This document shows positions 6,723-32,900 of a DNA stretch of 40,574 nt, in pieces; position 1 is the first letter of the stretch, and every line of letters starts with the position of its first letter. The position numbers and the translations under genes were made by a program. Origin of the DNA: Bacteroidales bacterium. Its GTDB lineage: Bacteria > Bacteroidota > Bacteroidia > Bacteroidales > UBA932. The stretch covers positions 1-40,574 of the forward strand of contig JAFTGA010000029.1 in assembly GCA_017458145.1 (NCBI GenBank), in the 5' to 3' direction. Under the pieces are notes generated by a model. It ran no database searches, was not told where the DNA came from, and was given only the letters and a program-made list of their open reading frames with translations.

Positions 6723-6754
6723 TTTATCTTTTATTTATAAATTTGCAGTTCAAT

Positions 6755-6811
6755 GTCATTCCGGGCCTGATCCGGAAACAGGTTCATCGTCATTCCGGGC
6801 TTGACCCGGAA
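6755..6811. repeat. Two copies of the GTCATTCCGG palindrome
   Basis: Two direct copies, 6755-6777 and 6789-6811, share the pattern GTCATTCCGGGC-TGA-CCGGAA; the second has a perfect TTCCGGG-N5-CCCGGAA stem. They fill the gap between the divergent C69 and 6823 genes and would be transcribed in either 5' leader. Further copies of the family lie at 7256-7278, 15585-15612 and 35483-35505. Candidate -7 boxes flank them: TAAATTTG at 6738-6745 (plus) and TAGATTTG at 6838-6831 (minus). Neither has a clear -33 element, so I rate those promoters low. Confidence 0.75.
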
Positions 6812-6822
6812 ACTTATAAAGT

Positions 6823-7236: not shown

Positions 7237-7255
7237 CATCATTTGCAAGCAAATA

Positions 7256-7281
7256 GTCATTCCGGGCTGGCCCCGGAATCT
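7256..7281. repeat. GTCATTCCGG palindrome, copy 3
   Basis: GTCATTCCGGG-CTGGC-CCCGGAAT with a perfect 8-bp stem (ATTCCGGG/CCCGGAAT), ending seven bases before the pheS start codon. A separate perfect palindrome, ATTTGC-AA-GCAAAT, precedes it at 7241-7254. The hairpin would lie in the ribosome entry region of pheS if transcription comes from upstream. Confidence 0.75.
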
Positions 7282-9573: not shown

Positions 9574-9665
9574 CGACGAGCGGAGTCTTCCAGACGGGCG
9601 GCCGGAAATTATTTTTCGGACAAGTTTGCCGAAAAACCAGTTTCCGCTCCGCTTTCCGCTCGTCG
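9574..9665. repeat. Palindromic element, copy A (intergenic)
   Basis: A 49-nt core (9604-9652) is an imperfect palindrome: outer arms GGAAATT/AGTTTCC, inner arms TTTTTCGG/CCGAAAAA (perfect, 8 bp) and loop ACAAGTTTG. The core matches 17271-17319 (other strand, inside trpC) at 44 of 49 positions. A further perfect 11-bp inverted repeat, CGACGAGCGGA (9574-9584) and TCCGCTCGTCG (9655-9665), encloses it. The copy lies between the queF stop and the SDR promoter and could also end queF transcription. Confidence 0.85.
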
Positions 9666-15562: not shown

Positions 15563-15612
15563 GAGATTCCGGGATTCGTTGTTCGTCATTCCGGGCTTGA
15601 CCCGGAATCTCC
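15562..15612. terminator. Bidirectional terminator, palindrome copy 4
   Basis: A perfect 12-bp inverted repeat, GGAGATTCCGGG (15562-15573) and CCCGGAATCTCC (15601-15612), spans the 23 bp between gltA and trpA and reaches into both stop regions. Inside it lies a GTCATTCCGGG-N5-CCCGGAAT repeat (15585-15609) that can form its own 8-bp hairpin. There is no clear T-run, so termination might need Rho or the collision of convergent polymerases. Confidence 0.65.
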
Positions 15613-16389
15613 TCCAAGACCGATATCCCCCTTCAAGCGCCGGATGGCACTGAGGGCGTCGCCGTCGGCTTCCTTGAGCAGGGTGACGAAGCGGCTGCCG
15701 ATGATGCCGCCGCTGGCGTAGGAGCAGGCGGCATCGAAGGTCTGCTTGTTGCTGATGCCGAATCCGACCATGCGCGGGATGCGCAGGTGCATGTCTTCGA
15801 TGCGTTGGAAGTAAGCCTGTTTCTGCGCGTCGAAGTTTTTTTGCGCGCCGGTCGTGGCGGCAGAGGAGACCATGTAGATGAAGCCGGAGGTGTTCCCGTC
15901 GATCAGGCGCACACGTTCCTCGGAAGTCTCCGGGGTGATCAGCATGATGAAACGCAGGCCATAGCGTTCGGCCACGCCTTTGTAGTTCTCCATATAGTCC
16001 TTGAAAGGCAGGTCCGGGATGATTATCCCGTCCACGCCCACCTCCACGCAGCGCCGGCAGAAGCGCTCGAAGCCGTAGCGGAACACCGGGTTGAGGTAGC
16101 CCATCAGGATGAGGGGGATGTCCACATCGGCGCGGATGCCGTCGAGTTGGGAGAAGAGTTTCTCCAGGGTCATCCCCCCGCGCAGGGCCTGCGCGGCGGC
16201 GTCCTGGATCACGGGGCCGTCTGCCATCGGGTCACTGAACGGGATGCCGATCTCGATCATGTCCACCCCTTCGCGGGCCAGGGTGCGGATCACGTCCGCC
16301 GTGCCGTCAGGCTTGGGCGCTCCGGCGCAGAAGTAGATGGAAAGCAGGCGCCTGGGATCGCTGCTGAAAAGTTGGTCTATGCGATTCAT
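15586..16389 (-). CDS. trpA: Tryptophan synthase alpha subunit
   Basis: A 267-residue TIM-barrel enzyme cleaving indole-3-glycerol phosphate to indole, which is channelled to TrpB. Catalytic Glu and Asp lie in MIEIGIPFSDPMADGPVIQ (about residues 46-58), and the phosphate-binding GFGISN and GIIGSRFV segments follow. The last eight residues (DSGSSPE and stop, preceded by Gly) are encoded by a GTCATTCCGG palindromic repeat rather than by trpA-like sequence, so the natural C-terminus was probably altered when the repeat arrived. It is the last gene of the trpBEGDCFA operon, four bases after trpF, and converges on gltA with 23 bp between the stops. Confidence 0.95.
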   Translation of the reverse strand: MNRIDQLFSSDPRRLLSIYFCAGAPKPDGTADVIRTLAREGVDMIEIGIPFSDPMADGPVIQDAAAQALRGGMTLEKLFSQLDGIRADVDIPLILMGYLNPVFRYGFERFCRRCVEVGVDGIIIPDLPFKDYMENYKGVAERYGLRFIMLITPETSEERVRLIDGNTSGFIYMVSSAATTGAQKNFDAQKQAYFQRIEDMHLRIPRMVGFGISNKQTFDAACSYASGGIIGSRFVTLLKEADGDALSAIRRLKGDIGLGGDSGSSPE

Positions 16390-16393
16390 TGTC

Positions 16394-17017
16394 TTATCGT
16401 TGCAGATTTTCCATAAATATTTCCAATAATTCGGGGTCCTTGATGCCCGGGGCCGTCTCGAAACGGCTGTTGAGGTCGAATCCCGCGAGGAAGGGGTAGA
16501 TGAAGTCGTGGAGAGTCGCCACCATATCCATGCCGATGCCTCCGCTCAGGATGAAGCGGGTCTTCTCCTCGTAGTCGTCCATGACGGACCAGTCGAAGCG
16601 CCGGCCGCTGCCGCCGTGGCCGGGAGTCTTGGTGTCGAACAGGAACAAATCACAGGCCCCTTCGTAGCCGACGACAGTGTTCCGCACGTCTTCGTCGGCG
16701 ATGCCGAAAGCCTTGATGACGCGCAGCCCGTCCTGTTCGCGCAGCCGTGCGCAGAACTCGGGAGACTCGTTGCCGTGAAGCTGGACATACGTGAACCCGA
16801 AGGTCTCGTTGCGGCGGAGGATCTCCTCGCGGGTCGCGTCCACGAAAACGCCCACCCGGCCGGCTTTCCGGGGCAGATAAGTAGGGACCTCCCGCACGAA
16901 TCTCGGTGATCCGGGCCAGAAGATGAAGCCGATCAGGTCCACGCCGAGGGCTTCGACGTCGCGGATGTTCTCTCCTTCGGTCATTCCGCAGACTTTGACG
17001 AGTTTGTTGTTGATCAT
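16394..17017 (-). CDS. trpF: Phosphoribosylanthranilate isomerase
   Basis: A 207-residue single-domain TrpF. The general base Cys lies in VKVCGMTEGENI (Cys10) and the general acid Asp in LFDTKTPGHGGSG (about residue 129); the phosphate site is LSGGIG. It isomerises phosphoribosylanthranilate to CdRP. The start overlaps the trpC stop by four bases (17014-17017) and trpA follows after four bases, so coupling is tight on both sides. Confidence 0.95.
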   Translation of the reverse strand: MINNKLVKVCGMTEGENIRDVEALGVDLIGFIFWPGSPRFVREVPTYLPRKAGRVGVFVDATREEILRRNETFGFTYVQLHGNESPEFCARLREQDGLRVIKAFGIADEDVRNTVVGYEGACDLFLFDTKTPGHGGSGRRFDWSVMDDYEEKTRFILSGGIGMDMVATLHDFIYPFLAGFDLNSRFETAPGIKDPELLEIFMENLQR

Positions 17018-17901
17018 AGGGCCTGGATGAATGCGGCCAGGGCGGCGCCCGGGTCGGGTTGTCTCATGAAATGTTCGCCCATCAGGAAACCGCGGTAGCC
17101 CGCGTCGCGCAGCGCCCGCACGGTCGCCGGGTCGCTGATCCCGCTCTCGGAAACGAATACCGGCGTGGCCGGCAGTCGTCCCGTGCCTGACAGACCGGGA
17201 GGCGTTCCCCCCGGACCCCCTGCGGCGCTTCGCTTCGACGGCCCCGCTGCGAGCGTTGGCGTTGTGAAGGGCGGAGCCGAAATTGGTTTTTCGGCAAATT
17301 TGTCCGGAAAATAATTTCGGTCCGTCTGCGAGGCAAGCAGCGGGGCCAGGTCAAATGAGGTCTGCACGTCCGTGACGAACGAGCCGAGGTGCCGGTTGTT
17401 CACGCCGACAACATCGACATCCGGAGTGATGTAGTCCAACTCGTCTGCGCTGTGGATTTCCAGCAGCACTTCCAGGCCGAGACGGCGGGCTTCGGCGGTC
17501 AGGGAAGCGCAGTCCGTCCGGCTCATGCACGCGGCGATGAGCAGCACGGCGTCCGCCCCCGCCTGGCGGGCTTCCACGAGCTGTACCGGGTCGATGATGA
17601 AGTCCTTGCGCAGGATGGGGATGTCCACGAGCGGGCGTACCCGCCGGATGAAGTCGAGGCTGCCGCCGAAATAGGATTCGTCGGTAAGGATGCTCAGCGC
17701 TGCAGCGCCTGCTGCCGCGTAGGCCGGTACGACCTGCTCCGGCACGGCCTCCGGGTGGATCCACCCTTTGGACGGGGATTTCCGCTTGAACTCCGCGATG
17801 ATTCCGGTCTCCGAGACAAGCAAAGCTTGCCTCAGCGACCGCCTTTTCCCGAATCGCAGCTCCTGCCGCTTGGTCTCCAGAATTTTGTCGAGGATATCCA
17901 T
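17014..17901 (-). CDS. trpC: Indole-3-glycerol phosphate synthase with an in-frame repeat insertion
   Basis: A 295-residue TrpC; family members are usually about 255-260. Standard segments are present: AEFKRKSPSKGWI (catalytic Lys/Glu region), ILRKDFIIDP, VLLIAACM, LLEIHS, VVGVNNRHL and, at Glu252, VFVSESGIS. Between DLAPLL (about residue 188) and LPATPVFVSESG (about 240) lie some 45-50 extra residues. They include RNYFPDKFAEKPISAP (195-210), encoded by a palindromic repeat with a second copy between queF and the SDR gene, then a Pro/Gly/Ala-rich stretch. By TIM-barrel topology the insert falls between helix 6 and strand 7, on the face away from the active site, so the enzyme may still work. 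No frameshift or stop is seen. It sits in the trp operon between trpD (6-bp gap) and trpF. Confidence 0.93.
   Translation of the reverse strand: MDILDKILETKRQELRFGKRRSLRQALLVSETGIIAEFKRKSPSKGWIHPEAVPEQVVPAYAAAGAAALSILTDESYFGGSLDFIRRVRPLVDIPILRKDFIIDPVQLVEARQAGADAVLLIAACMSRTDCASLTAEARRLGLEVLLEIHSADELDYITPDVDVVGVNNRHLGSFVTDVQTSFDLAPLLASQTDRNYFPDKFAEKPISAPPFTTPTLAAGPSKRSAAGGPGGTPPGLSGTGRLPATPVFVSESGISDPATVRALRDAGYRGFLMGEHFMRQPDPGAALAAFIQAL
17195..17347 (-). repeat. Palindromic element, copy B, inserted in trpC
   Basis: The 49-nt core (17271-17319, minus orientation) matches copy A at 44 of 49 bases. A perfect 11-bp inverted repeat, GGCCCCGCTGC (17240-17250) and GCAGCGGGGCC (17337-17347), encloses it; the 17337-17347 arm encodes native TrpC residues (LAPLL). 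A further hairpin, CCGGGAGG-CGTT-CCCCCCGG (17195-17214, one mismatch), lies on the far side. The extra DNA as a whole is roughly 140-155 nt and keeps the trpC frame. Its exact ends need a related trpC without the insert. Confidence 0.85.
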
Positions 17902-32824: not shown

Positions 32825-32900
32825 GCGGAAATAGCTCAGTTGGTAGAGCGCAACCTTGCCAAGGTTGAGGTCGCGGGTCCGAGCCCCGTTTTCCGCTCCA
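32825..32900 (+). tRNA. tRNA-Gly (anticodon GCC)
   Basis: A 76-nt cloverleaf: acceptor GCGGAAA/TTTCCGC, D arm with AGCTCAGTTGGTAGAGC, anticodon stem-loop CAACC-TTGCCAA-GGTTG with anticodon GCC, and T arm GCGGG-TCCGAGC-CCCGT. Discriminator T and an encoded CCA end it. It reads GGC and GGU glycine codons, heavily used in this GC-rich genome. It appears to be a single-tRNA unit with its own promoter (32767-32796) and terminator (32903-32933). Confidence 0.97.

What the first reader, a model, noticed from the sequence alone, without database searches (positions are those of the whole stretch)
17195..17347. A palindromic repeat inserted in frame inside trpC, enlarging a core biosynthetic enzyme
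TrpC here is 295 residues, about 40 above normal, and all the excess lies between DLAPLL and LPATPVFVSESG. The inserted DNA contains a 49-nt palindromic core (17271-17319) also present between queF and the SDR gene (9604-9652), 44 of 49 identical, on the other strand. In trpC it is read as RNYFPDKFAEKPISAP. The frame is intact and all TrpC motifs remain. From the TIM-barrel fold the insertion point is between helix 6 and strand 7, away from the active-site face, where extra sequence would be tolerated. Known parallels are the Rickettsia palindromic elements that insert in frame into protein genes; I know of no described equivalent in Bacteroidales, though I cannot search.
Basis: partly seen in the sequence, partly recalled or inferred. 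Interest (0 to 1): 0.88.

Follow-up and report, generated by a model that had tools for sequence, protein, structure and literature searches.

The report
Palindromic DNA repeat inside essential enzymes
A short hairpin-forming DNA repeat has inserted itself, without breaking the reading frame, into loops of many core enzymes in a group of rumen bacteria, including the tryptophan enzyme TrpC, showing that mobile DNA can reshape essential proteins outside the few bacteria where this was known.

Summary
Confirmed and much extended. trpC in the window is 295 aa. Residues 190-242 have no counterpart in the best solved IGPS and include a hairpin repeat shared with 9574-9665 (44/49 in the core).

The own genome has 6 copies. 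The loci from the genome scans held 96 true copies in 17 genomes, 15 of the 16 named ones Bacteroidales or Bacteroidia MAGs, mostly from ruminants. In the window's genus, 59 of 400 genomes match a covariance model. I count 30 of the 96 copies in frame in proteins: TrpC, AtpG (twice in one protein), PrmC, IspG, RimO, DapF, MetH, HemW, ManA, RmlD and others. Sister species show empty loops, in-frame scars without the core, inverted copies, and unrelated palindromes at the same loops. At eight loops, 102 of 102 distinct sequences are in frame without stops.

The stem covaries and is as perfect in ORF copies (594/600 Watson-Crick, no GU) as elsewhere. Many copies have private complementary arms of about 11 bp. 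TrpC spacers are inverted between similar arms. I infer a non-autonomous REP/MITE-like element, translated as protein, kept palindromic by template switching. It resembles Rickettsia palindromic elements; the mobilising enzyme is unknown.

The parts
17014..17901 (-). trpC (indole-3-glycerol phosphate synthase), 295 aa, carrying the insert
17240..17347 (-). type B hairpin element in frame in trpC, outer arms included
   Evidence: sequence; fold; arms; CM hit 17267-17330
17337..17347 (-). 5' outer arm GGCCCCGCTGC (within the codons of LAPLL)
17240..17250 (-). 3' outer arm GCAGCGGGGCC, 11/11 complementary to the 5' arm
17195..17239 (-). second, G/C-rich repeat ('PPG' type) joined to the hairpin inside the same insert
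   Evidence: pattern hit 17207-17223
9574..9665 (+). type A copy between queF and the SDR gene, outer arms CGACGAGCGGA/TCCGCTCGTCG
   Evidence: CM hit 9593-9656

Best explanation
The insert is one copy of a dispersed, non-autonomous palindromic element (REP/MITE-like). It moves in a clade of mostly ruminant Bacteroidales and is kept when it lands in frame in a loop of a protein. Shown: many copies; in-frame copies in unrelated core proteins; empty, filled, inverted and core-deleted states of the same loop in sister species; strong pairing covariation; three forward and two reverse frames open, so either orientation can be translated. Inferred: the extra residues are translated and tolerated. 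Inferred: the hairpin is a DNA hairpin whose arms are homogenised, and whose spacer is sometimes inverted, by polymerase template switching, so the palindrome stays near-perfect even inside genes. Inferred and weak: mobility needs a trans-acting enzyme acting on single-stranded hairpins; the RAYT-like Y1 transposases of these genomes are only candidates.
For: Six copies in the own genome. 96 true copies of 113 distinct pattern hits, in 17 genomes with up to 21 each. 59 of 400 genus genomes match the model, at most 13 candidates scored per genome. Pfam matches run across the insert or lie on both sides of it in TrpC, AtpG (domain 3-332 across two inserts), two PrmC, two IspG, RimO, DapF, ManA, HemW, RmlD, two MetH and GSCFA. 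Loop states in sisters. 102 of 102 loop sequences in frame, 0 with a stop. Covariation: 98.3% of cells paired; 83 double changes against 23.0 +/- 3.2 in shuffles; slid controls 32-65% paired. ORF copies 594/600 Watson-Crick, 0 GU; others 1256/1280, 9 GU. Arms paired above the cross-copy control out to about 11 bp, then background. Spacer inverted in G135 and G166 relative to G000 and G193. Arm homogenisation plus spacer inversion is the published signature of template switching (PMC8604942, abstract; PMC8794818, abstract).
Against: No movement was observed; one genome per species was available. No transposase is tied to the element: Y1 hits are in 18 of 24 genomes, element-poor ones included, and there is none in the carrier G135; the eight proteins scanned score below the RAYT cut-off (29-41 versus 80 bits). 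Not every copy has arms: runs of 3 bp or fewer in 21 of 30 type B and 23 of 54 type A unique-arm copies at fixed offsets, part of this from indels and from copies with an extra hairpin. Over all 11 arm positions the mean pairing is 0.67 in both ORF and other copies against 0.54 between copies. G166 arms match at only 6 of 11 in fixed register. Translation of the insert is not shown experimentally. Four of the 30 ORF copies sit near N termini (L006, L092, L101, L124), where the true start could lie downstream.
Confidence: 0.7

Rival explanations
1. The hairpin is kept by selection for an RNA function (mRNA stability, termination or attenuation); compensatory changes reflect RNA structure.
For: Strong covariation; a number of copies are intergenic, close behind stop codons (by inspection).
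Against: Pairing is as perfect inside ORFs of unrelated enzymes, in both orientations. GU cells are not favoured: 9 GU against 21 mismatches overall, 0 GU in 600 ORF cells. No Rfam match for the element.
Confidence: 0.12
2. The outer arms arise at insertion, as an inverted copy of the target flank or because the element lands in the loop of an existing palindrome.
For: Left arms in TrpC and RimO look like native codons (LAP and LPG); some type B arms equal CGTC-REP arms (ATTCGCCGGC), e.g. L304.
Against: At the L002 locus neither arm is present in the two empty relatives shown, and at L056 in five of six (the sixth, L385, keeps a short CGGCAG). Arms at one locus upstream of a purB-like gene differ between species yet stay complementary, so they change after insertion unless the insertions are independent.
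Confidence: 0.13
3. The hairpin is removed from the product by translational bypassing or RNA processing, so no insert is present in the protein.
For: Mobile hairpins that are bypassed exist in yeast mitochondria (recalled, not checked).
Against: 102 of 102 loop sequences keep frame and lack stops, which bypassing would not require; element-less scars are also in frame.
Confidence: 0.03
4. These are ordinary lineage-specific loop extensions without mobility.
For: The same loops are extended in many species.
Against: The same DNA core lies in many unrelated genes, in several reading frames, on both strands and between genes.
Confidence: 0.02

Closest known systems
Rickettsia palindromic elements (RPE-1 and others)
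   Same: Palindromic repeats of about 150 bp in ten families, many inserted in frame in unrelated metabolic genes; described in PMC10969869 (passages read).
   Different: No sequence relation was tested or claimed. Host is Bacteroidales, not an obligate intracellular bacterium. RPEs are said to lose repeat identity over time (PMC6649704, passage read), whereas ORF copies here keep 99% pairing.
REP elements (GTAG- and CGTC-tagged) and RAYT
   Same: Short palindromes, high copy, also reported inside ORFs (O. terrae, R. conorii and others; section 15 of PMC3733652 read); CGTC type reported in Bacteroidetes (passage).
   Different: REP stems are 5-13 bp with an unpaired tag (Table 1 passage); here the model has 21 pairs with two internal loops plus private arms, no fixed tag, and no demonstrated RAYT link.
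Inverted-repeat arm homogenisation by template switching
   Same: Arms made complementary and spacer inverted, also in coding DNA (PMC8604942, abstract).
   Different: There it acts on inverted repeats of 39 yeast genes; here on a dispersed repeat family inside enzymes.

Membership tests
Rickettsia palindromic elements | palindromic repeat inserted in frame in unrelated protein genes | tested here: met
Rickettsia palindromic elements | sequence homology to an RPE family | not tested
   no RPE sequence was fetched or compared
Rickettsia palindromic elements | CGTC at one end (stated for R. conorii RPEs in PMC3733652) | tested here: not met
   the four nt at the left foot are GACG in 48 of 92 copies, otherwise mostly CGCG, ACGG, AGCG; not a fixed tag
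GTAG/CGTC REP | unpaired GTAG or CGTC tag at one end | tested here: not met
   GTAG left or CTAC right in the searched flanks of 17 of 92, CGTC left or GACG right in 42 of 92, no fixed place required
GTAG/CGTC REP | short stem of 5-13 bp | tested here: not met
   21 pairs in the model, plus arms
RAYT-mobilised repeat | copies flanking a RAYT gene | tested here: inconclusive
   7 loose arm matches within 1 kb of 12 RAYT-like genes (22.2 kb), about 2.9 expected; a stricter pattern showed the loose one to be noisy; one real composite copy 192 nt upstream of the RAYT-like start in L304
MITE | terminal inverted repeats of a parent IS and target-site duplication | tested here: inconclusive
   arms are private to each copy rather than a fixed TIR; no parent IS sought beyond PF01797; target duplications not scored

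The most novel reading that the evidence does not exclude
The element is a self-repairing, invertible protein-coding palindrome. Because both strands are open and template switching homogenises arms and flips the spacer, a whole 25-30 aa loop segment of an essential enzyme can be replaced in one step by a different peptide without loss of frame, giving a continuing, non-adaptive source of loop diversity across many core proteins.
Probability: 0.3. Interest if true: 0.85.

Novelty: new variant of a known kind. Interest (0 to 1): 0.72.

Why it matters
A 2024 review calls it conceivable that RPE-like protein remodelling occurs in other prokaryotes (PMC10969869, passage read); this is such a case, outside intracellular bacteria and in core enzymes (ATP synthase gamma, IspG, PrmC, TrpC). 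The sister species with filled, empty, inverted and scarred states of one loop make the gain, loss and rewriting of coding hairpins testable. It also warns that covariation, normally read as evidence of RNA function, can arise here inside genes without an evident RNA role.

Tried and rejected
Rfam (window plus L139 and L134), phage and plasmid searches gave nothing for the element (Rfam found only a tRNA at 32825-32897). One viral contig matched the 21-nt core pattern but fails the flank rule. A first own-genome pattern was badly written and found nothing. RAYT association was looked for and is inconclusive. Inverted target duplication was my working model for the arms and was dropped. In the genus pattern scan 23 of 101 genomes match with up to 2 mismatches; the reversed-pattern control gives 3 hits; the many single hits with 2 mismatches were not examined and are not counted as copies. 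From 113 hits, 17 failed the flank rule and were dropped; at least five of these (L072, L074, L097, L115, L165) are composite relatives carrying the right half of the element with another repeat in the left half.

Of 26 copies that qualified for the DNA flank test, 18 were prepared, 9 were sent, and 4 (L002, L056, L123, L006) were aligned. There the script left out matched stretches of 700 nt or more, so L373 is not shown. The result was clear for L002 and nearly so for L056, and ambiguous for L123 and L006.

Full report
OBSERVATION. trpC (17014-17901, minus) encodes 295 aa and matches Pfam IGPS. Its best solved relative, 6y88, aligns to residues 25-189 and 243-289 with no chain residues left between them, so residues 190-242 (53 aa) are extra. 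The inserted DNA holds a hairpin whose 49-nt core matches 9604-9652 at 44 of 49, the first-listed inverted pair of the window. In trpC the hairpin proper is 17240-17347, with 11/11 complementary outer arms, followed by a second G/C-rich repeat (17195-17239).

COPIES. The own genome (G000, 2.18 Mb in 64 contigs, 81% complete) has 6 copies at up to 3 mismatches. An exact 21-nt pattern scan of the species-genome collection gave 110 stretches and of viral contigs 1. In all loci then held (these, the own-genome loci and the genus-scan loci), 113 distinct hits were found; 96 pass a flank rule. They come from 17 genomes, with 21 copies in RGIG7610, 17 in RUG14425 and 10 in SRR8387718_bin.64. Of the 16 named genomes 15 are titled Bacteroidales or Bacteroidia, many from rumen or omasum; one 3.4-kb contig is titled Clostridia and may be misbinned. 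In 400 genomes of the window's genus (name not given by the tools) the covariance model finds 59 with a match at E<=0.001 (at most 13 candidates were scored per genome, so copy numbers are lower bounds). Other species carry forms with the same stem but other apical loops (20 regions fetched, seen).

ANATOMY. From 71 distinct 64-nt copies (of 76 distinct ones) the consensus is one hairpin with two conserved internal asymmetries and a conserved 9-nt loop region. 98.3% of cells pair. 83 cells are changed on both sides against 23.0 +/- 3.2 in shuffles, and slid controls pair 32-65%. The 24-40 pair lies inside my search pattern, which allowed but did not force pairing. Outside the core, two subfamilies differ: A, with CGGAGTCTTCCAGACGGG on the left, and B, with CCGCCCTCCACAACGCC on the right (55 A, 28 B, 2 both, 11 neither). 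Beyond these, many copies have private outer arms. In type B, positions 2, 4 and 5 of the arm pair in 80% of copies against 29-41% between different copies, with little shared sequence (0.27-0.44 bits); both types fall to background at about 12 bp. Many copies lack a continuous arm at fixed offset: runs of 3 bp or fewer in 21 of 30 type B and 23 of 54 type A unique-arm copies. The two inner type A positions are themselves conserved, so there the cross-copy control is high (0.63-0.74).

IN-FRAME COPIES. I count 30 of 96 copies as lying in a protein frame (list). Pfam supports 17 of them, in 16 proteins (20 proteins scanned, the other four being L063, L160, L123 and L105, which I do not count): TrpC, both AtpG inserts of one 333-aa protein (one domain match 3-332), two PrmC, two IspG, RimO, DapF, ManA, HemW, RmlD, two MetH at different sites, GSCFA, a Porin_10 protein and a pectate lyase. 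In the last two the insert is N-terminal to the domain. The other 13 rest on shared motifs or likeness to those. Four copies are near N termini (L006, L092, L101, L124) and less certain. The element is read in three forward frames (NYFSDKFAEKP, EIIFRTGLPKNQF, ELFSGQVCRKTN) and backwards (AERKLVFRQTCPKNNF); one reverse frame has a stop, by inspection.

LOOP HOTSPOTS. Taking all genomes whose loops were printed. TrpC, 12 genomes of the clade: element in gene orientation in 4 (G000, G416, G193, G380), inverted in 2 (G135, G166), type A variant in 1 (G124), another palindrome in 1 (G266), scars with outer parts but no core in 2 (G299, G074), empty in 2 (G008, G081). PrmC, 15 genomes: element in 4 (one inverted), a truncated remnant in 1 (G000), other repeats in 5, short loop in 5. 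IspG, 17 genomes: element in 2, other repeat families in 7, partial remnants in 2, short loop in 6. AtpG first site, 11 genomes: element or loop variant in 5, remnants in 2, other families in 4. These labels are by inspection. At eight loops the distinct sequences between anchors number 102; all 102 are in frame and none has a stop, with lengths from 24 to 423 nt.

MECHANISM. Pairing of the inner hairpin is 594/600 Watson-Crick with 0 GU in the 30 ORF copies and 1256/1280 with 9 GU in 64 others (two of the 96 copies, L083 and L157, are cut by the end of the stretch). An RNA-level constraint should tolerate GU and should not apply to unrelated ORFs on either strand. In TrpC the spacer of G135 and G166 aligns inverted to that of G193 (scores 76 and 65 against 31 and 23 direct), while G000 aligns direct (63 against 27), between similar arms (10 of 11 complementary in G135, 6 of 11 in fixed register in G166). 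In G000 the arm pair carries C/G where the core-less scar of G299 carries T/A: a synonymous Leu codon on the left and its complement on the right. Upstream of a purB-like gene (gene name recalled from its sequence), copies in four species (L056, L062, L068, L116) have arms that differ among the species, except L062 and L068, yet are complementary, and L056 is in opposite orientation (sequences, by inspection). Homogenised arms plus inverted spacers are the signature described for template switching (PMC8604942, abstract), which can also create and maintain hairpins (PMC8794818, abstract). I therefore infer template switching as the force that keeps these palindromes perfect. My earlier idea, inverted duplication of target flank at insertion, is not supported: at L002 neither arm is present in the two empty relatives shown, and at L056 in five of six, although TrpC and RimO left arms do resemble native codons. 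How copies move is not shown; RAYT-like Y1 proteins exist but also in element-poor genomes, not in the carrier G135, score below the family cut-off, and have no consistent copies beside them.

KNOWN OR NEW. In-frame palindromes are known from Rickettsia (RPE; passages of PMC10969869 and PMC6649704 read) and as intragenic REPs in several bacteria (PMC3733652, section 15 and passages read; it also lists CGTC repeats in Bacteroidetes). I found no report of this element or of in-frame palindromes in Bacteroidales in my searches, whose library holds only openly licensed papers and of which I saw listings capped at 10-20 titles. The element lacks the fixed tag and short stem of REPs and was not compared in sequence with RPEs. 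I file it as a new variant of a known kind: it works like RPEs, is not shown to be one, and adds hotspot loops shared by several palindrome families, both orientations in one loop, in-frame core loss, and near-perfect hairpins in coding copies.

Noticed in passing
window 15578-15610: A small palindrome (CGTCATTCCGGGCTTGACCCGGAATCT, like published CGTC-REPs) supplies the last residues (DSGSSPE) and the stop codon of the upstream trpA-like ORF (15586-16389, minus); relatives lie at 6748-6780, 6782-6814 and 7249-7281.
   Followed up: partly
IspG, AtpG, PrmC and HemW loops in L246-L253, L236-L243, L259-L263, L336-L347: At least four other repeat families are also inserted in frame at the same loops: EAKSASxDRPGPGTL, EGSAAAGFVAPNPVPAPAGSEDGSRAAG (whose flanking arms also differ yet pair, by inspection), SPFQGECALHSVPGGDSTAAVSSGN and SFAGLTGES.
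   Followed up: partly
L104 (MetH, 1032 aa): One MetH protein seems to carry three palindromic inserts, and RmlD in L142 two (by inspection).
   Followed up: no
L304, 1222-1376: A composite type B copy with CGTC-REP-like arms lies 192 nt upstream of the start of a RAYT-like Y1 transposase gene in RUG14425.
   Followed up: partly
L126 (MetH), L142 (RmlD), L331 (HemW): Peptides such as CHPERSEG, LRQAQE and CHPELAEG mark further repeats read inside proteins.
   Followed up: no
L112: A 3.4-kb contig titled Clostridia carries the element at its end; G+C 0.61 against 0.62 in the window, so it may be misbinned.
   Followed up: no
L063, L075, L109, L151 and others: A third form (C) has an extra nested hairpin (GGGGTCCCCGAAAATCTGTGATTTTTGGGG) between the left arm and the core, also read in frame in RimO.
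   Followed up: no
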